Of a stretch of 37,826 nt of DNA, positions 12,291 to 35,282 are shown in pieces; the stretch's first letter is position 1; every line of letters starts with the position of its first letter. This DNA is from a virus: the IMG/VR virus record IMGVR_UViG_3300042938_002633, positions 1 to 37,826 of that record; one strand, given 5' to 3'. The notes beneath the pieces were generated by a model, which searched no databases, had not been told where the DNA came from, and saw only the letters and a list, made by a program, of their open reading frames with translations. The translations under genes were made by a program, and so were the position numbers.

Positions 12291-13676
12291 TTAGCTATTT
12301 GAATTGTTCCTAATTTCCTCAAAAGTCATATCACGGATTAGTTTACCATTAAGGTAAACGGTTTCAAGTCCATGTTTCCAACCATTGAGTAATTCAGGTG
12401 TTGTTTCACTTGTGGCAAATTTATTATCTTTACGCCACAGTTCAAGTAGACCTGCTTTGCTTTTCTTACCTGAATCGGTAATAGGATCCTTTAGAACTTT
12501 TCTCCAATCATGTTTACCGATTCGCACAGCAGAGCATTTCATTGCAAATTTCTGTGTATCCCTATTCACCTGTTGAAGAAGAGCACCACCCATACCAAAA
12601 GCAATATTATCAGCAGAGTAGCCGTTATTATCAAAGACAGTAAGGATATCCTTGACTGTGTTATAATTGACCCCATCACCCTGGATTAATCTAACATTAT
12701 TCAGGACTCGGTATCCCTTATCATTTACTGTAGAGCCAAATTTCTTATCTAGGAGCTGAATAAGTTTACAATTTACAGCAACCGGTTCACCAGAATCTGG
12801 TCGAATAACCAGAGTAGCACCAGAGTCGATGATCTTTTGTTTCAGCTCACCACCCCAGAGATTTTCTGCTGCATTGAATACATCATAACTATCACTCACA
12901 ACAGCAAGAATAGCACCAGGCTTGGCAAACTTATTCAGCATATTTTCATATGCTTTTACTTCATATGGGCGACCCCAACTAGTAATTGTGCTGTGTTCTG
13001 CGGCTGGAATAGAGAAACCAGCAATGCCTGCATTATAATGCTCACGAGCCCAAAGAATACCCGCAATGGTATCAGTACCCATGAAATTAATTAGATGCGC
13101 AGCACCACCAATTCCAGCGGATTCTTGACTTGAAACACCACGTGCACCGAAGTCATGAAGTTTAAAGCTAAGTCCAGCAGGATCACCATTCTTTTCTAAG
13201 AATCCTTTAATTAGATTCTTGATGGCTTTGCTGTTGGTTGCTACAGTTGTAGGATACCAAATTGCACGAAGCAGAGCTGTTTCCAAATGTGTTGTCAACC
13301 AAAAACAATTTGGATCTGTATTTTCAATAGTAAGTAGAACATTACTTACAGGAACAATAGTACCTTCTGGAACTGCACGGATATGGACTGGTAGTTTACC
13401 ACCGTGGTTGGTAACAATATATTCCCAACCAACACGATTAAATGGTTCACCATGGGCTTGCATAATTTCTTCTGCTAGATCAATGTCTGCCATTGTCACC
13501 GGCGTTAGAAGATAATCTTTAATGAAACCCTGTAGACCAAAGAATAAAGTTTCTAGATGTTCACCACCTCGTGATTCAATGTAGCTGTGAACAATTTCAG
13601 TCCCTTCTGGGTATTGTTCAAACATTGAAACTTTATAGCTGTCAACATTAAGTAGAATATTTTTTAGAATAGTCAT
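12291..13676 (-). CDS. nadV: Nicotinamide phosphoribosyltransferase (NAMPT/NadV)
   Basis: A 461-residue enzyme that makes nicotinamide mononucleotide from nicotinamide and PRPP. The start NVDSYKVSMFEQYPEGT, then HDFGARGVSSQESAG (conserved active-site region), the EHSTITSWG segment and RPDSGEP phosphate-binding loop are hallmarks of NAMPT. Length matches the family. GGAG precedes the ATG. It lies directly downstream of the NMN adenylyltransferase gene (18 nt gap), so the two form an operon covering nicotinamide to NAD+. Phage examples include Vibrio phage KVP40. Confidence 0.96.
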   Translation of the reverse strand: MTILKNILLNVDSYKVSMFEQYPEGTEIVHSYIESRGGEHLETLFFGLQGFIKDYLLTPVTMADIDLAEEIMQAHGEPFNRVGWEYIVTNHGGKLPVHIRAVPEGTIVPVSNVLLTIENTDPNCFWLTTHLETALLRAIWYPTTVATNSKAIKNLIKGFLEKNGDPAGLSFKLHDFGARGVSSQESAGIGGAAHLINFMGTDTIAGILWAREHYNAGIAGFSIPAAEHSTITSWGRPYEVKAYENMLNKFAKPGAILAVVSDSYDVFNAAENLWGGELKQKIIDSGATLVIRPDSGEPVAVNCKLIQLLDKKFGSTVNDKGYRVLNNVRLIQGDGVNYNTVKDILTVFDNNGYSADNIAFGMGGALLQQVNRDTQKFAMKCSAVRIGKHDWRKVLKDPITDSGKKSKAGLLELWRKDNKFATSETTPELLNGWKHGLETVYLNGKLIRDMTFEEIRNNSNS

Positions 13677-13693
13677 TAGATAAACTCCTTATC

Positions 13694-14689
13694 TTATTTC
13701 TTAAGTTTGGTAAAAGCTGGCATTGGCATAACACCAGTCATAGTAGAGATAATAGCAGCATGGTCATCATAGAGCTCATATGTATTAAGAGCATCAGTGA
13801 GTGGCACCCATTTACATAGTGCAGCATCATCGGCGCCATTTGCTCGTGGTAGAGAATAGTCTGGATTTGGACTGATCCTCATATAGACTGCTAATGTATT
13901 CCTTAGCAAGCCAAATGATCGAGACGGTGAATCAAAAAGTTGAGTCTTGACAATAGAGCCACGAAGAACTTTTTCTGGTACTCGAACATTTGTTTCTTCT
14001 TGAAGTTCACGAATAGCACAATCAAGAAAAGTTTCTTTATTATTTCTAAATCCACCTGGTAGAGCCCAACATCCAGCACCTGGAGCAAACTTACGTTGGA
14101 TTAGAAGAACATGACCCTGACATTCTAGAACAGCATCAGAGCAGTTGAAGTTGAGAGTATCAGGGAATGGATAGTTTGCAAACAGTTCTTGTTCTTTCTT
14201 ATAGAACAGATGATCTTGATAGACCGTTTCCGGCATACGCTTATCATGTTCTGCAAACATCTTTGCACGAATAGATGTAGCATTTACTGTATATTCGGCT
14301 TCAATATTTTTGAAGTTCCAATCTGGAAACCAGTTAAGATAGTCATTACCATCTTTTGTGTGACCAAAAAGAGTCGGTGGTGAATAGATGCCCCAATTCT
14401 TTTGGGTATACTCTACGCTTGCACGTACATCTGCCATCCACTGAGTATGGGAGTATTGATAGTCATTAAGGGGAAGAATGTCAATCAGATTGTCAATCTG
14501 TTCCCATTTTGAATGGAACATCTGAACTCGCTCTGAATAGGTCCATGGATTTTTAATGCTACGGCACTGATTAGCCGAACCGATAAGGACCAGAAGAAGG
14601 TCTACTTGCTTAGCGGCAACCTTGATTGCCTGAATATGACCTTCATGTAAGGGCTGAAAACGCCCAATGAATACGCCTAATGTTTTCAT
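13694..14689 (-). CDS. nadM: Bifunctional NMN adenylyltransferase / Nudix hydrolase
   Basis: A 331-residue protein. The N-terminal nucleotidyltransferase domain has GRFQPLHEGH (8-17) and the ATP-binding STxR-like TSIRAKM segment; it joins NMN and ATP to make NAD+. The C-terminal domain has a Nudix box: GG, then E seven residues on, then RELQEET, for hydrolysing ADP-ribose or similar nucleotides. This fusion is known from cyanobacteria and phages. Start chosen at MKTLGVF because AGGAG precedes it; a longer frame runs into the promoter. First gene of the NAD operon. Confidence 0.95.
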   Translation of the reverse strand: MKTLGVFIGRFQPLHEGHIQAIKVAAKQVDLLLVLIGSANQCRSIKNPWTYSERVQMFHSKWEQIDNLIDILPLNDYQYSHTQWMADVRASVEYTQKNWGIYSPPTLFGHTKDGNDYLNWFPDWNFKNIEAEYTVNATSIRAKMFAEHDKRMPETVYQDHLFYKKEQELFANYPFPDTLNFNCSDAVLECQGHVLLIQRKFAPGAGCWALPGGFRNNKETFLDCAIRELQEETNVRVPEKVLRGSIVKTQLFDSPSRSFGLLRNTLAVYMRISPNPDYSLPRANGADDAALCKWVPLTDALNTYELYDDHAAIISTMTGVMPMPAFTKLKK

Positions 14690-14722
14690 GTTCTTAACTC
14701 CTAAGAAACAATTTATATGTAT

Positions 14723-14750
14723 ATTATATACCACCTGTGGTGGTTGTCAA
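14723..14750 (-). promoter_or_regulatory. Promoter of the NAD salvage operon
   Basis: TTGACA (14745-14750), 16 nt spacer, TATAAT (14723-14728), exact consensus. The spacer holds an inverted repeat CCACC/GGTGG that could be an operator. Confidence 0.8.
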
Positions 14751-14839: not shown

Positions 14840-15022
14840 TTAAGTCTTTTTACACTCTATAATCTTATATTGAATTTCAGACTTATGCTTCTGAAATACG
14901 CTATTCATATGCTCAACCATATTTATCTCATCTCTGCAATCAGGGCTAGTGCTCTGTAGATTAATCGGGGAGCCCGTAGGAACCCCACCGATTAACATAG
15001 AGACAACAAGTACAATATTCAT
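14840..15022 (-). CDS. 60-residue hypothetical, possibly exported
   Basis: Starts MNIVLVVSMLIGGVPTGSP, a short hydrophobic N-terminus that could be a signal peptide, followed by a polar part with two Cys. The ATG shares a base with the TAA of the DUF2828 gene, so it is probably cotranslated. Ribosome binding site weak. Function unknown. Confidence 0.52.
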   Translation of the reverse strand: MNIVLVVSMLIGGVPTGSPINLQSTSPDCRDEINMVEHMNSVFQKHKSEIQYKIIECKKT

Positions 15023-16449
15023 TAGAAATTGTACCTTTCAGCCATAAGGGTCTTCATCATCATTGCCTCTGGTGTAAACTGTTCTAGATCGGAAGCCAGA
15101 ATAGACTTGAGGATAGATGGGCTGAAACCAGAGACTAGAGCCACACCATTCTCATTTTCCTTTACAGGAACATTGTCGTGTGAATTTAGATTCCAGAAAA
15201 CAATCTTTGGCATTGTATAACCGGCATCTGTAAACTTGCGACGGAATGTTTCCATAGCAGAGCCATCAAAGCGAGCGCATTGATTAAACTGCATGTCTGA
15301 AAGAATAAGAAGAGTGGAAGGCATATCCTCCTGTGGCACATTACCATTGACTGCAGTGTGAAGGATTAGATCCATTGCGGCAACAATGTTGGTGCTCATA
15401 GCCCATGAAGATTTAATCATCTGATCAATCTTCTGTAGGATATTACCACGAAGAGTTAGTAGTTCTGGTTGACTAGAGAATGTAAGGAACATGTCCTTAA
15501 AGTCCCCAGTATTCTTATCAGCACAATACAGACCAAGAGAAACAGCCACATCAAGGCAAGATGTGGTGCTAGAACCACCAACTGGGCATGTCATGGATCC
15601 AGAAACGTCAACCAGAGGAAGAACGTTTGAACCATTCATATAGTTTGGTAGTGCTTCCCACTGAGCCCGAACAGCATTTAGTTCTGCTTGAGAGTACCCA
15701 GCTGAAGTCCGATAGTGACTAATCTTACCCTTGAGTACATCATAAGGATAGACTGCACCAGCATTGATCTTGACTTCTTCACGAACCTTAGGATCAGTGC
15801 TGACAAGCTTTGATGTCCATTCCTTATACTTGGTAGTATTACGGTTGAAGGCCTTCTTATAGCGAGCAGAAGCAACAGATGGGACATGATTGAAGTTGAT
15901 AGAATCCCAATCTTTAGCGCACATCTGACTCTCAACAACAGAAGAGAGATTGACTAGAGTCTTACGGTACTGCTTAGGAGTGAAACCTAGAGCATTACGA
16001 AGTTCAATAGCAATTGGTCCCTTACGTGGCATCCACTTTGCAGCTAGACCATCACGTGTTGCAAGAGCACGTCGAACCATTCCAATAGCAATATTACGTG
16101 CTTCACCAGAAGTAGAGAATACGTCATCCCAACGCCCAAGTTCTGGTACACGAAGTACTAGACGAGAAGCCATATTTGGATCGTTATCAGAGACATATGC
16201 AAGAATAGAACGGAAAATTTCACGTTCACCTGCACCGGATCGAATATCACGAGCCCATAGAGCAATACGGCAAGCAAGTTCCTTATCTTGAACATATGCT
16301 GCGATAAAGTCTGGTAGGACATTCTTGCCACGTGAAGCACCGATCTTATAGAATAGATCAACGCATGGATTAGTTGTGCTCTTTAGAGCCTTCATACCGT
16401 TTGTGGTACGAGTAGTTTGATTGCGAGCAGCCTTAGCAAAAGCGTTCAT
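15022..16449 (-). CDS. DUF2828 / TROVE-like Ro60-type protein with vWA domain
   Basis: A 475-residue protein. The N-terminal helical part has ARDIRSGAGEREIFR (66-80), the GGKGER-like signature of DUF2828. The C-terminal von Willebrand A domain carries the MIDAS DVSGSM (281-286), later LILSDMQFN and KIVFWNLNSH, all typical of DUF2828. The family shares its plan (helical repeats plus vWA) with TROVE/Ro60 proteins, ring-shaped binders of misfolded RNA and Y RNAs. RNA binding here is inferred. Its leader consists of a tandem array of structured RNA modules (16471-17077), much as bacterial Ro genes sit next to Y RNAs. AAAGGA lies right after the last module and before the ATG. Confidence 0.9.
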   Translation of the reverse strand: MNAFAKAARNQTTRTTNGMKALKSTTNPCVDLFYKIGASRGKNVLPDFIAAYVQDKELACRIALWARDIRSGAGEREIFRSILAYVSDNDPNMASRLVLRVPELGRWDDVFSTSGEARNIAIGMVRRALATRDGLAAKWMPRKGPIAIELRNALGFTPKQYRKTLVNLSSVVESQMCAKDWDSINFNHVPSVASARYKKAFNRNTTKYKEWTSKLVSTDPKVREEVKINAGAVYPYDVLKGKISHYRTSAGYSQAELNAVRAQWEALPNYMNGSNVLPLVDVSGSMTCPVGGSSTTSCLDVAVSLGLYCADKNTGDFKDMFLTFSSQPELLTLRGNILQKIDQMIKSSWAMSTNIVAAMDLILHTAVNGNVPQEDMPSTLLILSDMQFNQCARFDGSAMETFRRKFTDAGYTMPKIVFWNLNSHDNVPVKENENGVALVSGFSPSILKSILASDLEQFTPEAMMMKTLMAERYNF

Positions 16450-16569: not shown

Positions 16570-16582
16570 TAAGTAAGATAAC

Positions 16583-16711
16583 AGAGTGACTTCTTCTCCG
16601 GGTTTAACCAGGCGGATTCGAAACCCTGGGTTGTCAATTTGACCGTAGTCTGTGACATTTTCATGAAAGCCCTCGTGAAAGGGCTAAAATGGGTTGCTGA
16701 ATGGTCACTCT
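16583..16711 (-). ncRNA. RNA module 5
   Basis: Outer helix AGAGTGAC/GTCACTCT (8 bp), 2 nt, then TTCAGC. Inside: hairpin AGCCCT-TTCACG-AGGGCT and a T-loop-like TTCGAAT flanked by CCAGG/CCTGG (about 16608-16629). Followed by CTGTTA. Confidence 0.78.
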
Positions 16712-16721
16712 AAAATTTAAC

Positions 16722-16823
16722 AGAATAGCATGCTTTTCCTGGCAATCCAGCCTCGCAACGGTCGAATCGAACGACCACGGTCCTTGTTCAAAAAGAAGAT
16801 TTTTATGTTGCTGTAACTATTCT
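16722..16823 (-). ncRNA. RNA module 4 with canonical T-arm
   Basis: Outer helix AGAATAG/CTATTCT (7 bp), then TTACAGC. It holds a perfect tRNA T-arm GGTCG-TTCGATT-CGACC (16760-16776) next to a GCAAC/GTTGC helix that takes the place of an acceptor stem. No anticodon arm is visible. Confidence 0.8.
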
Positions 16824-16842
16824 TTATTCTTAAGAGAATAAC

Positions 16843-16942
16843 AGGATGTTGTTTTTTAGGTTGGATTTGAACCAACTACCAGGTGTTTTGAGGACACTTT
16901 GCTCTACCGATGAGCTACTATTTGGTTTGCTGAAAACATCCT
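16843..16942 (-). ncRNA. RNA module 3, tRNA-like
   Basis: Outer helix AGGATGTT/AACATCCT (8 bp), then TTCAGC. Inside are a D-arm (GCTC-ATCGGTA-GAGC, 16901-16915), an anticodon-like hairpin (GTGT/ACAC, loop CCTCAAA, 16883-16897) and a canonical T-arm (GTTGG-TTCAAAT-CCAAC, 16860-16876). Only 3 bp of a normal acceptor stem can form and position 33 is C, so this is a tRNA mimic and not a working tRNA. Confidence 0.82.
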
Positions 16943-16951
16943 TTAGATATC

Positions 16952-17014
16952 AGATTCGCTTTTTTGCAGTTTTGATTTACAGTTCAATTGCTTTTTGAAT
17001 GCTGAAACGAATCT
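16952..17014 (-). ncRNA. RNA module 2
   Basis: Outer helix AGATTCG/CGAATCT (7 bp), then TTTCAGC. Interior is A-rich with an imperfect TTCA..ATT/AATTGAA hairpin. No tRNA-like arm. Confidence 0.72.
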
Positions 17015-17024
17015 ATAAGTTAGC

Positions 17025-17077
17025 GGGTTGGACTTGGTTGCTCTTGGATTATAGCTTTTGTAGGCTGAACCCAACCC
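17025..17077 (-). ncRNA. RNA module 1
   Basis: Outer helix GGGTTGG/CCAACCC (7 bp), then TTCAGC one base later. Shortest unit; first after the promoter. Confidence 0.72.
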
Positions 17078-17099: not shown

Positions 17100-17128
17100 A
17101 TTATATACCAGATTTATGTCAATGTCAA
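17100..17128 (-). promoter_or_regulatory. Perfect promoter driving the RNA array and DUF2828 gene
   Basis: TTGACA (17123-17128), 17 nt spacer, TATAAT (17100-17105). The -35 is read as Leu-Thr codons at the end of the PTH2-like gene. Predicted start of transcription is near 17093, about 15 nt before module 1. Confidence 0.85.
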
Positions 17129-17761
17129 TAGACTTTTTCCAGTAAAAAGCTTTTTTCTTTGCGCATATGACTTTCTCATTGGATGATAAGCCATAGCAGT
17201 AAATTGTCCAATATCAGACTCAAAGAAGTAAGCAAATGGGATCTTAGATATTTTAGCCTTAGATATCTCATTAAGAAGATCTTGATAATTCTCTAAAGCT
17301 AGTACACAAAAATGTTGCTTTTTAGCATCAGCTTTATGTTTTGAAACTTGTTGACCGAGCACCATAGCCACATGGGCAGCTTGAACAACTTGTTGAATTG
17401 GTGGTAAGTCTTGTCTTACAAGAATGTAAGCATAAGTTTTATCTTGCCATTCTTCTTTAAGAAGCTTTCTAGTAATCTCATTAAATGCTAGTTTTGAAAC
17501 TTCATCAAGTTCATTATAAATGACCGACCGATTATTCCAAGCCAAAGCATCTAACAGAGACTGAAATGGTTTATTTCCACCGTTCAGCTTAGATTCTTTA
17601 GTGATTGGAGAAAATGATCGAAATAGAAGTGCTTTAGCAACTTCAAGCTTCTCATTAGATTTTGCAAAAATGGCTTTTGCAATACAATAAGCAGCTACAT
17701 CATAATTCTGGATTTGCTTTAGATTAGCAAGATTTTTCCAAGTAGTAGTAATATTATCCAT
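17114..17761 (-). CDS. Protein with PTH2-like C-terminal domain
   Basis: A 215-residue protein. The last ~105 residues (AYILVRQDLPPIQQVVQAAH, later HFCVLALENYQDL and FFESDIGQFTAMAYHP) follow the order seen in peptidyl-tRNA hydrolase 2-like proteins (VR.DL....QAAHA, then Asp/Glu in a strand). The N-terminal ~100 residues are helical and unrecognised. If correct, it acts on aminoacyl or peptidyl-tRNA-like ends, fitting its place between a tRNA and the tRNA-like array. AGGAG precedes the ATG. The call is tentative. Confidence 0.55.
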   Translation of the reverse strand: MDNITTTWKNLANLKQIQNYDVAAYCIAKAIFAKSNEKLEVAKALLFRSFSPITKESKLNGGNKPFQSLLDALAWNNRSVIYNELDEVSKLAFNEITRKLLKEEWQDKTYAYILVRQDLPPIQQVVQAAHVAMVLGQQVSKHKADAKKQHFCVLALENYQDLLNEISKAKISKIPFAYFFESDIGQFTAMAYHPMRKSYAQRKKLFTGKSLLTLT

Positions 17762-17891: not shown

Positions 17892-17966
17892 TGGTGCAAA
17901 TGCGGGGAATCGAACCCCGACTTCCGATTTTAGAGATCGCCCTGCTAACCGTTACATCACATTTGC
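17892..17966 (-). tRNA. tRNA with CUA anticodon (amber suppressor)
   Basis: Acceptor GCAAATG/CATTTGC, T-arm CGGGG-TTCGATT-CCCCG, encoded CCA. Anticodon loop CTCTAAA on CGAT/ATCG gives CTA, which reads UAG. One G-G mismatch at 27-43. It follows RNA module 0 by 9 nt. The amino acid it carries cannot be told by eye. Confidence 0.8.
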
Positions 17967-17975
17967 ATATTAAAC

Positions 17976-18033
17976 GGATTGGTGTGTTTTTGTTTTTTCC
18001 AATAAAAACTTTTTTAGTTGCTGAAACAAATCC
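17976..18033 (-). ncRNA. RNA module 0 (separate copy of the array module)
   Basis: GGATT/AATCC helix (5 bp, extendable with one mismatch), then TTTCAGCAAC as in the array, with a GTTTTTATTGG..AAAAAC interior. Lies between the 18046-18402 gene and the CUA tRNA. Confidence 0.6.
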
Positions 18034-18461: not shown

Positions 18462-18683
18462 TTATTTTGGTTCAAAGTATTTGGCTTCATCACCACATTT
18501 AAATATTCTAATAACGGCACAATAAGAATTGTAAGCACTTCGACCTGTAACTGAATCAATCTCCACAAATTTCGGATGACCACACTTAGAATACTTTTTA
18601 AATGGTATCCCTAAAATAGGAATATAAGACATAGGATCACGCTTTTCAAATTTACAATCTTTACAAAACTTCATATCTTCCAT
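18462..18683 (-). CDS. Small Cys-rich protein
   Basis: Seventy-three residues with CKDCKFEK near the start and two more Cys (SKCGHPKF, NSYCAV); CxxC plus CGH suggests one zinc site. AAGGA precedes the ATG. Overlaps the end of the GIY-YIG gene by 23 nt. Function unknown. Confidence 0.65.
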   Translation of the reverse strand: MEDMKFCKDCKFEKRDPMSYIPILGIPFKKYSKCGHPKFVEIDSVTGRSAYNSYCAVIRIFKCGDEAKYFEPK

Positions 18684-19347
18684 AATATATTTCCTTTTGA
18701 AGGATCAACCTACCTTTTATCCAGTTTTGTTCAAGATAAATTTCAAGTTGATCTTTTTTAATTTTTTTATTTTCAAAACCATTATTAATCCAGCAGGTAT
18801 TAAACTGAGAATTTTTTGATCCTTGTTGATGTTTATTTTCTATAAAAGTCTGTTTTCTTTTCATAACAGCATTGGGAGATTGTGCTTGTTCTAATGCTTT
18901 TTTAAGTATAGATTTATTAATTGAAAAATTTGTAGATTTCTTTATTGTTCTATTTTGTTTAATTAACTTTTGTTTATTTTTTTCATAAACACCATTTTGC
19001 CAATGTTCTCTGACAGTATTTGCTATTTTTTGTTTGCTATTTTCATTAAGTGGTAATTTAAGATTATTTTTATTAATGTAACTAAACCCACCCTTACCAC
19101 CTTCAATAAGATTATAAGTTGATTCACTTACTACAACCAATTCTTTTTCTTTGGTATTCATTTCTAATTCATTATCAAATATATGTAATATTTCTTTTTT
19201 AAAGTTTTCTTTACCATGTTTTTTAATGGCTGCTTTGATAAGTTTACCAGAACCCATATAATTATCATCTAAATTTTTGGTTTGATGTTTACCTACATAA
19301 TATTTGTTATTAATTTTATTAGTAATTTTATAGATAGTATAAAACAT
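18661..19347 (-). CDS. GIY-YIG homing endonuclease (copy A)
   Basis: A 228-residue endonuclease: IYKITNKINNKYYVGKHQTK carries the GIY-YIG module (IYK...YVGK), followed by YMGSGKLIKAAIKKHGKENF, the SegA/MobE-like continuation; the basic middle and the NSQFNTCWINNG end fit a DNA-binding tail. It is paralogous to 34584-35282, nearly identical over the first 50 residues. It sits 3' of tRNA-Leu(CAA), separated by a long hairpin shared with the other copy. Such enzymes cut recipient DNA to spread their gene. Confidence 0.93.
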   Translation of the reverse strand: MFYTIYKITNKINNKYYVGKHQTKNLDDNYMGSGKLIKAAIKKHGKENFKKEILHIFDNELEMNTKEKELVVVSESTYNLIEGGKGGFSYINKNNLKLPLNENSKQKIANTVREHWQNGVYEKNKQKLIKQNRTIKKSTNFSINKSILKKALEQAQSPNAVMKRKQTFIENKHQQGSKNSQFNTCWINNGFENKKIKKDQLEIYLEQNWIKGRLILQKEIYYGRYEVL

Positions 19348-25251: not shown

Positions 25252-25467
25252 ATGAATGCAAAATATCGTGTGACTCTTTGGGAAAGTGAACGTGGATGGG
25301 GTCGCAAGCCTTTCCTGGATCAAGATTTTGAAAGTCTTGAACTAGCTCATGCCTACTATCAGACCGAGAACGCCAAGAACAATCTTTCTTACGTTCCTGA
25401 TTACTATATCTTTGCAGAGAAACCTGTGCTAGTTGATGCTGATATCAACCCACCAAAGGATTATTGA
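25252..25467 (+). CDS. 71-residue hypothetical protein
   Basis: Begins MNAKYRVTLWESERGWGRKP; strand then helix, aromatic-rich. AAAG precedes the ATG; 3 nt from the previous stop. Function unknown. Confidence 0.68.
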   Translation: MNAKYRVTLWESERGWGRKPFLDQDFESLELAHAYYQTENAKNNLSYVPDYYIFAEKPVLVDADINPPKDY

Positions 25468-25468
25468 A

Positions 25469-25777
25469 ATGACTGAAAAAGTTAAGATTCTATTTAGCCC
25501 CGGTTTTGGCTCTGGTTGGTATTCCTGGAATACCCAATACCCAGAACTACTGAGAGATGAACGAGTCATTCAATGGCTTGAAGATGGCGAAGATCCTGAA
25601 GAAAAGATTGAACTTGTTTCTTATCTAGAAAACAAATATCCAAAAATGTGCATTGGATCTAATCTAGATAGTCTAGAGATTGCCCTTATCCCTAAGGGAA
25701 CTTTATTCCGTATTAAGGAACATGATGGTTCCGAAATTCTTGAACTAAGAGATAAAGTTATTTGGCAACTTGCTTAG
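25469..25777 (+). CDS. Conserved phage protein with PGFGSGWYSWN motif
   Basis: A 102-residue protein, MTEKVKILFSPGFGSGWYSW onward; the PGFGxGWxxWN signature recurs in unrelated large phages (from memory), role unknown. AAAGGA precedes the ATG. It ends in TAG, and reading through that codon would continue in frame into the next gene. Confidence 0.75.
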   Translation: MTEKVKILFSPGFGSGWYSWNTQYPELLRDERVIQWLEDGEDPEEKIELVSYLENKYPKMCIGSNLDSLEIALIPKGTLFRIKEHDGSEILELRDKVIWQLA

Positions 25778-26050: not shown

Positions 26051-26443
26051 ATGAAGATCCTTCGATTCCACGAGAAGCATGGCGATCGAGTTTTCCTTTT
26101 CAAAACCAAAGAGGAATACCAGCTGATCCTAGCGCAGGTTGCACAGGAAAGGTTGGATGAAGGCTATTGGTATGACACTGAGAATGGCAGTGATCAGATT
26201 GACAGGTTGTGGCCCATGCGGCATCTCAGTGATGCGGGTCACATTGCACTGCTGCTCAAGCGTCTCCAGGACCCTTTGGAACGGCCCAACACCAACCCCA
26301 CCAGCTATTATCTGCACCAGGTTGCGCAATGGATGCGAGCTCGTCGGGACTATGAGTATGAGGGCTGGGATGTACTGCCCGTCGAACAGTGTCAACTCAC
26401 CCACTACGAGGGCAGCGTGCGTCGCACCAGCTCTGCAACATAG
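26051..26443 (+). CDS. 130-residue hypothetical protein
   Basis: Start chosen at MKILRFHEKHGDRV because AAGGA lies 9 nt upstream; an in-frame ATG at 26021 is the alternative. Helical, Gln/Arg-rich. Higher GC than its neighbours. Third member of the same-frame TAG chain; its own stop is TAG, with TGA four codons later. Confidence 0.66.
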   Translation: MKILRFHEKHGDRVFLFKTKEEYQLILAQVAQERLDEGYWYDTENGSDQIDRLWPMRHLSDAGHIALLLKRLQDPLERPNTNPTSYYLHQVAQWMRARRDYEYEGWDVLPVEQCQLTHYEGSVRRTSSAT

Positions 26444-26454
26444 AGGTTCATAAT

Positions 26455-26787
26455 ATGAAAACACTTGCTAGATTTGCCATTCGCCCTGCTGATAACCAGT
26501 ATTCAAAGGGCGACCTTATCCTGGGCGCTATGTTTCGAGAGCAGGACACCAACCTGCTCAAACCCAACTATGTGTATGAGATTCGAGAAATTCTAGATAC
26601 ACTTACTATAGTAAATATGGGTGAGAGTTCAATGGGTATGTATCCCATTGAAGCCCAACTTGACAGCCCACTACGAGGTATGGTATCCCATGTTGGATGG
26701 TGTTCAGACGTAAGCTATATTCTTAGCGTAGGTGCTGGACAACATTTAGTAACTCGCACTGAAATGAATAGATCATTTAGGAGGTAA
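26455..26787 (+). CDS. 110-residue hypothetical protein
   Basis: Begins MKTLARFAIRPADNQYSKGD; mixed alpha/beta. GAGG 6-9 nt upstream decides this start over a longer frame that overlaps the previous gene. Function unknown. Confidence 0.68.
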   Translation: MKTLARFAIRPADNQYSKGDLILGAMFREQDTNLLKPNYVYEIREILDTLTIVNMGESSMGMYPIEAQLDSPLRGMVSHVGWCSDVSYILSVGAGQHLVTRTEMNRSFRR

Positions 26788-34553: not shown

Positions 34554-34625
34554 TGGTGCCTTCACGTGGTAACGCTCCACGATCTAGTCGCTTATGAGAC
34601 GACCGAGATCACTTGATCTGAAGGC
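34554..34625 (-). tRNA. tRNA-Met (CAT) with atypical elbow
   Basis: Acceptor GCCTTCA/TGAAGGC, anticodon loop CTCATAA on GTCGT/GCGAC, CCA encoded. The T-loop is AGCGTTA (A54, T58: a swapped pair) and the D-arm is reduced to GATC-AAGT-GATC. The GIY-YIG gene's TAG stop lies inside it. Could be a lysidine-type tRNA-Ile. Confidence 0.8.
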
Positions 34626-35282
34626 ATTTATATTTCTACCACGATACCAATTATCAGGCATCGGTTCATCTAATTTTATTTTTTTATTATTGGTACCATC
34701 AGTTATCCAAATGGTACCAAATTGTGAATTTTTCTCACCATTGTGTTTATGTTTGTGAGATAAAGACATTTTTTGTTTTGTATGTGATGTGTGGTTTTTC
34801 CCAAAGAAATGGTTTAAAGAACCAATTTTACTAGATAGATATAATGGGTCTTTTTCTAAGATTGCTTTTAGTTTAGAATTAGCAATATTTGAAAGAACAG
34901 ATCTCCAATTTTCACCATATTTACTTTCTAAAATAAGATCAGTTGCTTTACGACCGTTTTGATATACTTTTGTTTCAGGATTCATAATAGGAGATAATTT
35001 ATTTTCATTAACATATCCCCATCCACCTTCCCCACCAGGACAAAGATTATAACTACTTTCACTTAAAACTACATATATTTTTTCAGCTTCATCCATTTCT
35101 TTTTCGGTATTAAAAAAACCAAGTATTTCTTTCTCAAAGTTTTCTTTACCGTGTTTTTTGATGGCGGCTTTGATAAGTTTTCCTGAGCCCATATAACCAT
35201 CATCTAATTTTTTAGTCTTGTGTTTACCAATATAAAATTTATTATTAATCTTATTGGTAATTTTGTATATAGTATAGTACAT
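34584..35282 (-). CDS. GIY-YIG homing endonuclease (copy B)
   Basis: A 232-residue paralogue of 18661-19347. IYKITNKINNKFYIGKHKTK and YMGSGKLIKAAIKKHGKENF are nearly identical; the middle differs; NSQFGTIWITDG near the end again matches. The last ~14 residues (AFRSSDLGRLISD) are read from tRNA-Met sequence and end in TAG. It lies between two tRNA-Met genes and is preceded by the shared hairpin at 35293-35341. Confidence 0.93.
   Translation of the reverse strand: MYYTIYKITNKINNKFYIGKHKTKKLDDGYMGSGKLIKAAIKKHGKENFEKEILGFFNTEKEMDEAEKIYVVLSESSYNLCPGGEGGWGYVNENKLSPIMNPETKVYQNGRKATDLILESKYGENWRSVLSNIANSKLKAILEKDPLYLSSKIGSLNHFFGKNHTSHTKQKMSLSHKHKHNGEKNSQFGTIWITDGTNNKKIKLDEPMPDNWYRGRNINAFRSSDLGRLISD

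What the first reader, a model, noticed from the sequence alone, without database searches (positions are those of the whole stretch)
16583..16942. tRNA mimicry inside three modules of the array
Modules 3, 4 and 5 hold T-loops (TTCAAAT, TTCGATT, TTCGAAT). Module 3 also has a good D-arm and an anticodon-like hairpin, but lacks an acceptor stem and U33, and is embedded in the 8-bp module helix. Module 4 has only the T-arm stacked on a 5-bp helix. Known Y RNAs of the YrlA type carry a tRNA-like domain; here different modules show different degrees of tRNA likeness, as if captured from several tRNAs.
Basis: partly seen in the sequence, partly recalled or inferred. Interest (0 to 1): 0.8.

Follow-up and report, generated by a model that had tools for sequence, protein, structure and literature searches.

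The report
Ro-clamped RNAs that mimic tRNAs
Next to its Ro60-like gene this phage carries a row of small RNA modules closed by a shared helix that probably docks on Ro, one of which folds like a tRNA whose acceptor stem has been replaced by that helix; the same module family recurs in hundreds of phage and bacterial copies and resembles an RNA class thought to be unique to social amoebae.

Summary
The tRNA-likeness is real in modules 3 and 4 and weak in module 5. On the minus strand, upstream of a Ro60-like gene (15022-16449), five modules each have a 6-9 bp terminal helix and an internal NUNCAGCA(A)-type motif. Module 3 (16842-16941) scores 35 bits with Rfam tRNA: D-arm, anticodon-like arm and T-arm in tRNA order, no U33, acceptor cut to 3 bp. 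Module 4 has only a perfect T-arm. Module 5 has the letters TTCGAAT but no T-arm.

The clamp is a family trait: 501 sense against 21 antisense copies in phage loci, and 169 against 4 within 2 kb upstream of bacterial and archaeal DUF2828-type Ro genes. Inserts mimic tRNA in two topologies: tRNA order with the clamp in place of the acceptor (module 3 type), and circularly permuted (YrlA type). Shuffles give almost none.

Best reading: Y-RNA-like Ro partners with tRNA-mimic effector domains. The clamp differs from YrlA's Ro stem. Unexpectedly, Rfam's Dictyostelium Class I RNA model recognises the short modules (up to 40.1 bits, cut-off 41.5), with the same layout. New variant of a known kind. 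Ro binding, and what the mimics recruit, are inferred, not shown.

The parts
15022..16449 (-). Ro60-like (TROVE-fold/vWA; Pfam DUF2828 + DUF7788) protein gene, 475 aa
   Evidence: Pfam PF25043 4.9e-46, PF11443 2e-21; model matches D. radiodurans Rsr 2nvo, TROVE 9kop and phage phiLo Ro60 9l5y
17100..17128 (-). consensus sigma-70-type promoter TTGACA-17-TATAAT just upstream of the array
   Evidence: 12 of 12 matches; consensus match only, not tested
17024..17076 (-). module 1: clamp GGGTTGG/CCAACCC with GTTCAGCC
16951..17013 (-). module 2: clamp AGATTCG/CGAATCT with TTTCAGCA
16842..16941 (-). module 3: clamp plus tRNA-like insert in tRNA order (D, anticodon-like, T)
   Evidence: RF00005 35.1 bits; fold z -2.9; relatives
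16857..16920 (-). tRNA-like core of module 3: 3-bp acceptor stub, D-arm 16915-16901, anticodon-like arm 16897-16883, T-arm 16876-16860
16721..16822 (-). module 4: clamp AGAATAG/CTATTCT with TTACAGCAA; T-arm at 16776-16760
16582..16712 (-). module 5: clamp TAGAGTGAC/GTCACTCTG with CATTCAGCAA (11-nt register); TTCGAAT at 16622-16616 not in a T-arm
17975..18032 (-). outlying sixth module (one mismatch in clamp) upstream of ORF 17114-17761; related to L211 in the contig of L003

Best explanation
The array encodes Y-RNA-like partners of the Ro60-like protein made next door. Each module is a clamp (6-9 bp helix whose 5' strand runs into an unpaired NUNCAGCA(A); the helix's outer G-C pair is followed by UG-3') on which Ro is proposed to dock, plus an exchangeable insert that serves as effector domain. 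In module 3 the insert is a tRNA body (D, anticodon-like and T arms around a 3-bp acceptor stub) joined through A-rich linkers to the clamp, so the clamp takes the place of the acceptor stem. Module 4 keeps only a T-arm. Such inserts cannot be aminoacylated (no free acceptor/CCA end) but could be bound by enzymes that read the tRNA elbow, as YrlA is by TruB and DusA, and so bring them, or the exonuclease PNPase, to Ro and the RNA it holds. Shown here: clamp, register, pairing with compensating changes, strand and position relative to ro, predicted tRNA-like folds, Ro fold. Inferred: that Ro binds the clamp, that modules act as separate RNAs, and what the mimics recruit.
For: Ro identity. Clamps in 61 nonredundant upstream regions: 141 against 3.6 in shuffles; 131 of 135 share one register, 9 nt from the pairing G to CAGC. 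Whole loci: 501 sense, 21 antisense. Test without choosing by pairing: 53 of 53 last modules, picked by CAGCA position alone, have a perfect 6-bp partner followed by TG, with six different helices. Bacterial/archaeal Ro genes of the same Pfam type: 169 sense, 4 antisense clamps within 2 kb upstream, 67 of 76 loci. tRNA-likeness; in 14 module-3-type inserts D-stem pairs 56/56, anticodon stem 69/70, T-stem 68/69, stub 38/42, many with several pair types. YrlA core recognised by RF02553 in permuted modules, up to 46 bits. Promoter. Known precedent: YrlA basal stem binds Rsr, its tRNA-like domain binds PNPase and is modified by DusA/TruB (PMC8394870).
Against: No binding, expression or processing data for this phage. 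In Listeria phage CKA15 the reported hot non-coding region 26236-26727 holds no clamp; clamps lie at 25289-25553, so expression of clamps is not shown. Some Ro-bearing phages (KVP40, DLP6, Milchi) have no clamp within 1.5 kb upstream or about 1.6 kb downstream of ro, though KVP40 has one about 7 kb away. Two tRNA hallmarks (U33, full acceptor) are missing in module 3. The clamp differs from the Ro stem of RF02553.
Confidence: 0.7

Rival explanations
1. The modules are decoys: the tRNA-like inserts, with tRNA-type anticodon loops, soak up host anticodon nucleases or similar tRNA-cutting defences, and Ro only stabilises or presents them.
For: 12 of 14 module-3-type inserts keep U33 and a 7-nt anticodon loop, six with TCT. 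A competitive-inhibitor role was proposed for YrlA (PMC7790460). Phages commonly face tRNA-cleaving defences (general knowledge).
Against: Module 3 itself lacks U33; most modules carry no tRNA-like insert; permuted modules often have a poor or no anticodon arm. YrlA was not cut by the nuclease studied (PMC7790460).
Confidence: 0.15
2. The region is a structured 5' leader acting in cis on ro expression, not a set of trans-acting RNAs.
For: Array lies directly upstream of ro on the same strand with one strong promoter-like site and no terminator-like site before ro on that strand.
Against: Clamps also lie downstream of ro (S13, SUSP2, LeBron) and far away in tRNA clusters (KVP40, contig of L074); inserts vary freely while the clamp is fixed.
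Confidence: 0.12
3. Modules 3 and 4 are decaying tRNA genes from the phage's tRNA cluster.
For: The window is rich in tRNA genes; ARAGORN calls some module-3-type inserts tRNA genes.
Against: Stems keep pairing through compensating changes, the same insert type recurs on the same clamp in many distant phages and bacteria, and the acceptor is uniformly reduced to a stub followed by A-rich linkers.
Confidence: 0.04
4. The inserts are working tRNAs freed by RNase P and RNase Z, with clamps as spacers.
For: In Cronobacter phage S13 tRNA halves with perfect 7-bp acceptors span module boundaries; 5 of 32 permuted modules keep NCCA.
Against: Module 3 has only a 3-bp acceptor stub and no CCA; in most permuted modules the acceptor is a closed hairpin.
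Confidence: 0.05

Closest known systems
YrlA (bacterial Y RNA; Rfam RF02553)
   Same: Ro-adjacent gene, basal stem plus tRNA-like domain; permuted modules of relatives match the YrlA core (T, acceptor hairpin, D) at up to 46 bits.
   Different: Module 3 has tRNA order with the clamp at the acceptor end; Ro-binding stem sequence differs; none reaches the RF02553 cut-off of 69; arrays of several different modules.
Dictyostelium Class I RNA (Rfam RF01414)
   Same: 6-bp terminal stem, CUUACAGCAA-type motif just inside the 5' strand, variable remainder, 3' ...CUG with its C paired to a conserved 5' G, about 60 nt (PMC7919456).
   Different: Eukaryotic, single genes with DUSE promoter, known binder is an RRM protein; spacing to CAGC is one nucleotide longer; best phage score 40.1 bits is just under the cut-off 41.5.
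Vertebrate and Deinococcus Y RNAs
   Same: Small RNAs whose terminal stem docks on Ro60/Rsr.
   Different: Vertebrate Ro site is a 7-bp helix with a bulged C and a 3-nt bulge opposite (PMC4726728); no such bulges and no Rfam vertebrate Y RNA match here.
tRNA (Rfam RF00005)
   Same: D, anticodon-like and T arms of module 3, 35.1 bits.
   Different: Acceptor cut to 3 bp, no CCA, no U33, held in a Ro clamp.

Membership tests
Y RNA (RNA partner of Ro60/Rsr), general | Gene next to a Ro60/Rsr homologue | tested here: met
Y RNA (RNA partner of Ro60/Rsr), general | Conserved terminal stem, as expected of a Ro site | tested here: met
   Conserved covarying clamp; binding itself not tested
Y RNA (RNA partner of Ro60/Rsr), general | Physical binding to Ro | not testable with these tools
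   needs gel shift or pull-down
YrlA (RF02553) | Score at or above gathering cut-off 69 | tested here: not met
   best 46 bits in a relative; no match in the window array
YrlA (RF02553) | tRNA-like domain in order T, acceptor hairpin, D | tested here: not met
   module 3 is D, anticodon, T; met in relatives such as L011, L013, L018
YrlA (RF02553) | Its basal stem sequence (cggCga-AUGC ... UuGucGccg) | tested here: not met
   alignments of two relatives show mismatches over the stem and CAGCAA-type motif instead
tRNA (RF00005) | Gathering score 29 | tested here: met
   35.1 bits, model 5-66 of 71
tRNA (RF00005) | 7-bp acceptor stem and U33 | tested here: not met
   3-bp stub, C33; not called by ARAGORN
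Dictyostelium Class I RNA (RF01414) | Gathering score 41.5 | tested here: not met
   40.1 bits best in relatives; 17.2 and 16.6 in the window
Dictyostelium Class I RNA (RF01414) | Stem joining ends, CUUACAGCAA-type motif, G-C pair before 3' UG | tested here: met
   against PMC7919456; spacing one nucleotide shorter
Ro60/TROVE protein | Ro fold (HEAT-like ring plus vWA domain) | tested here: met
   Foldseek 2nvo 3.6e-7, 9kop, 9l5y; model of moderate confidence (pLDDT 72)
Ro60/TROVE protein | Pfam TROVE match | tested here: not met
   matches DUF2828 and DUF7788 instead

The most novel reading that the evidence does not exclude
The clamp RNAs of DUF2828-type Ro proteins in phages, bacteria and an Asgard archaeon, and the Class I RNAs of Dictyostelium (regarded as unique to social amoebae, with a role in development), are one RNA family: Class I RNAs would be Y RNAs, and an unrecognised partner of theirs a Ro-like protein. 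Within this family tRNA mimicry arose in at least two topologies.
Probability: 0.4. Interest if true: 0.92.

Novelty: new variant of a known kind. Interest (0 to 1): 0.74.

Why it matters
Y RNAs are known to mimic tRNA, but one topology (YrlA) is described in the sources I could read. Here the same Ro clamp carries tRNA mimics in tRNA order (clamp at the acceptor end) and circularly permuted (YrlA type), in arrays, in many phages and bacteria. That gives a simple sequence rule for finding candidate Ro-bound RNAs, exposes probably mis-annotated 'tRNA' genes in phages, and makes it testable which tRNA-reading enzyme the mimics recruit. The match to Dictyostelium Class I RNAs, if it holds, would give a poorly understood eukaryotic RNA class a new protein partner and a mechanism.

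Tried and rejected
Module 5 as a T-arm: rejected; it may be akin to a separate hairpin class with UUUCGANUU loops (14 of 250 clusters, 0.02 in shuffles), but module 5 itself does not meet that pattern. Recent capture from phage tRNAs: identity at background. Expression support from Listeria phage CKA15: the hot region does not coincide with clamps. Profile search of PDB sequences with the Ro alignment: only weak (TROVE E 0.05); fold comparison settled it. Covariation counted on modules chosen by pairing would be circular; replaced by the position-only test. MAFFT alignment of module-3-type inserts misplaced some arms; pairs were counted on arms assigned by hand. Papers on YrlA by Chen 2014, Sim 2018 and Sim 2020 are not held. 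No paper found in the held library links phage Y RNAs with a CAGCAA motif or Class I RNAs with Ro. No eukaryotic genome could be searched.

Full report
WHAT IS THERE. The window is a fragment of a virus record from IMG/VR with a T4-like DNA polymerase whose closest matches are cyanophages and over 20 tRNA genes. The finding lies on the minus strand, between a sigma-70-like promoter with a perfect consensus (17128-17100) and a 475-residue Ro60-like gene (15022-16449). That protein matches Pfam DUF2828 and DUF7788, not Pfam TROVE, but its predicted structure matches D. radiodurans Rsr (2nvo), a TROVE domain (9kop) and Ro60 of Thermus phage phiLo (9l5y) as the only hits below 1e-3.

THE MODULES. 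Five modules follow the promoter, and a sixth lies apart at 17975-18032. Each is closed by a 6-9 bp helix whose 5' strand runs into NUNCAGCA(A) or a close variant. Module 3 contains the tRNA-like fold: RF00005 35.1 bits over model positions 5-66; MFE and centroid agree on clamp, D-arm, anticodon-like arm and T-arm, z -2.9. Module 4 has a perfect T-arm only. Module 5 has TTCGAAT without a T-arm.

THE CLAMP IS A FAMILY TRAIT. Relatives of the Ro protein were collected from viral contigs, phage genomes and bacterial/archaeal genomes. In 61 nonredundant phage upstream regions 141 clamps were found, 3.6 expected from dinucleotide shuffles. 131 of 135 had the same register: nine bases from the outer pairing G to CAGC, and the partner C is as a rule followed by UG. 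Scanning 1.96 Mb of loci (partly overlapping) gave 501 clamps on the sense strand and 21 on the other. Because these searches require pairing, an independent test chose the last module before ro by the position of CAGCA alone: 53 of 53 have a perfect 6-bp partner, with six different helix sequences. In 80 loci from bacterial and archaeal genomes, whose Ro is of the same Pfam type where checked, 169 clamps lie within 2 kb upstream on the sense strand and 4 on the other; 67 of 76 loci with enough upstream sequence have one. Some of these loci may be prophages; this was not checked. Named phages with the clamp near ro include A511, S13, BUCT-ZZ01, NCTC12673, VRE9_3, SUSP2 and LeBron; phiM12 has a related module with a longer helix.

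TWO TOPOLOGIES OF tRNA MIMICRY. Among 250 clusters of phage modules, 22 are circularly permuted tRNA-like (T-arm, acceptor hairpin, D-arm), 20 have an anticodon-like hairpin followed by a T-arm in tRNA order, and 15 have a T-arm only; shuffles give 0, 0.15 and 0.45. A few of the 20 are permuted modules with a longer acceptor hairpin that the rule missed, so 14 were assigned to the module-3 type by hand. Among 160 deduplicated bacterial modules the counts are 4, 17 and 17 against 0, 0 and 0.16. Permuted modules come in two openings, between D and anticodon arms (for example L013, L071, L126) and between anticodon and T arms (L003 at 4749, L018); their core matches RF02553 YrlA at up to 46 bits, below its cut-off of 69. 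Fourteen inserts of the module-3 type share D (56/56 cells paired), anticodon (69/70) and T stems (68/69) plus a 3-bp acceptor stub (38/42), with compensating changes; 12 of 14 have U33, the window's does not. In these the clamp replaces the acceptor stem, whereas in YrlA the basal stem occupies the anticodon side (structure line). I found no description of the module-3 topology in the library available to me, but the key YrlA papers are not held.

ORIGIN. Identity of module-3-type inserts to real phage tRNAs, setting aside matches to the modules themselves, is at background, so recent capture is not shown. Five of 32 permuted modules keep NCCA after the acceptor 3' strand (0.5 expected), and in phage S13 clamp boundaries sit inside the anticodon loops of consecutive tRNA-like genes with perfect acceptors. 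Both suggest derivation from tandem tRNA genes, with moderate weight.

THE CLASS I RNA MATCH. In the window search Rfam RF01414 (Dictyostelium Class I RNA) matched modules 3 and 4 weakly. In 34 phage records it finds clamps: best 40.1 bits (E 1.4e-7 in a 101-kb contig; cut-off 41.5), then 33.8, 33.4, 29.4, 28.8; by a loosened criterion 25 of 26 hits with E below 0.01 carry a clamp. In bacterial genomes the best hits are weak (24.3 and 20.7 bits) but appear by position to fall upstream of the Ro gene in two genomes. The published description of Class I RNAs (PMC7919456) fits the clamp: terminal 6-bp stem with compensating changes, an 11-nt motif inside the 5' strand, variable remainder, 3' CUGU whose C pairs with an invariant G, about 60 nt. 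That paper found them only in dictyostelids and names an RRM protein as direct binder. Differences: one more base between stem start and CAGC, and no score over the cut-off. Shared ancestry and convergence on one kind of protein surface cannot be told apart here.

HOW IT MOST LIKELY WORKS. Clamp as Ro docking site, insert as exchangeable effector. For YrlA the basal stem binds Rsr and the tRNA-like domain binds PNPase and is modified by DusA and TruB (PMC8394870). By analogy module 3 would present a tRNA elbow to such enzymes. Binding, expression and recruitment remain unproven; decoy action against tRNA-cutting defences is the main functional rival.

VERDICT. A new variant of a known kind: Y-RNA-like Ro partners with a distinct clamp and with tRNA mimics in two topologies. 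It is not a YrlA member by Rfam's test and not a tRNA.

Noticed in passing
L094 (contig of L074, 49390-49443), L096, L095, L098, L097, L099, L100: Rfam Dictyostelium Class I RNA model recognises the short phage clamp modules, up to 40.1 bits against a cut-off of 41.5.
   Followed up: partly
L083 4870-5290 (Cronobacter phage S13): Clamp boundaries lie inside the anticodon loops of consecutive tRNA-like genes with perfect 7-bp acceptors and CCA; the record annotates them as tRNA-Ser of 121 nt and tRNA-OTHER of 113 nt.
   Followed up: partly
L003 (-603), L006, L109, L141, L163: ARAGORN reports module-3-type mimics as tRNA genes (SeC-TCA, Cys-GCA, Ile-AAT, Arg-TCT), so some phage 'tRNAs' are probably such mimics.
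   Followed up: partly
window 17892-17966: tRNA with anticodon CTA (amber suppressor type, followed by CCA) near the array; a CTA tRNA also lies upstream of ro in L003, L005, L014 and L052. TAG ends 3 of 33 likely genes here.
   Followed up: partly
L005, L006, L013, L026, L029, L052, L064, L065, L116, L141, L146, L147, L150, L163: A recurring hairpin with a UUUCGANUU loop on a GAG/CUC-type stem in larger modules, 14 of 250 clusters against 0.02 in shuffles.
   Followed up: partly
L257 (Lokiarchaeota MAG), 250 bases upstream of ro: An Asgard archaeal contig carries a DUF2828/DUF7788 Ro gene with a clamped, permuted tRNA-like module that keeps ACCA after the acceptor 3' strand.
   Followed up: partly
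window 12291-14734: Two genes next to ro look like nicotinamide phosphoribosyltransferase (by eye) and a nucleotidyltransferase-Nudix fusion, suggesting an NAD salvage pair.
   Followed up: no
L093 (Listeria phage CKA15), paper PMC12282133: The Ro homologue CKA15_055 was detected in purified virions by mass spectrometry; the strongly transcribed non-coding region 26236-26727 holds no clamp and remains unexplained.
   Followed up: no
window 18661-19347 and 34584-35282: Two similar ORFs beginning with YTIYKITNKINNK, the first matching GIY-YIG homing endonuclease.
   Followed up: no
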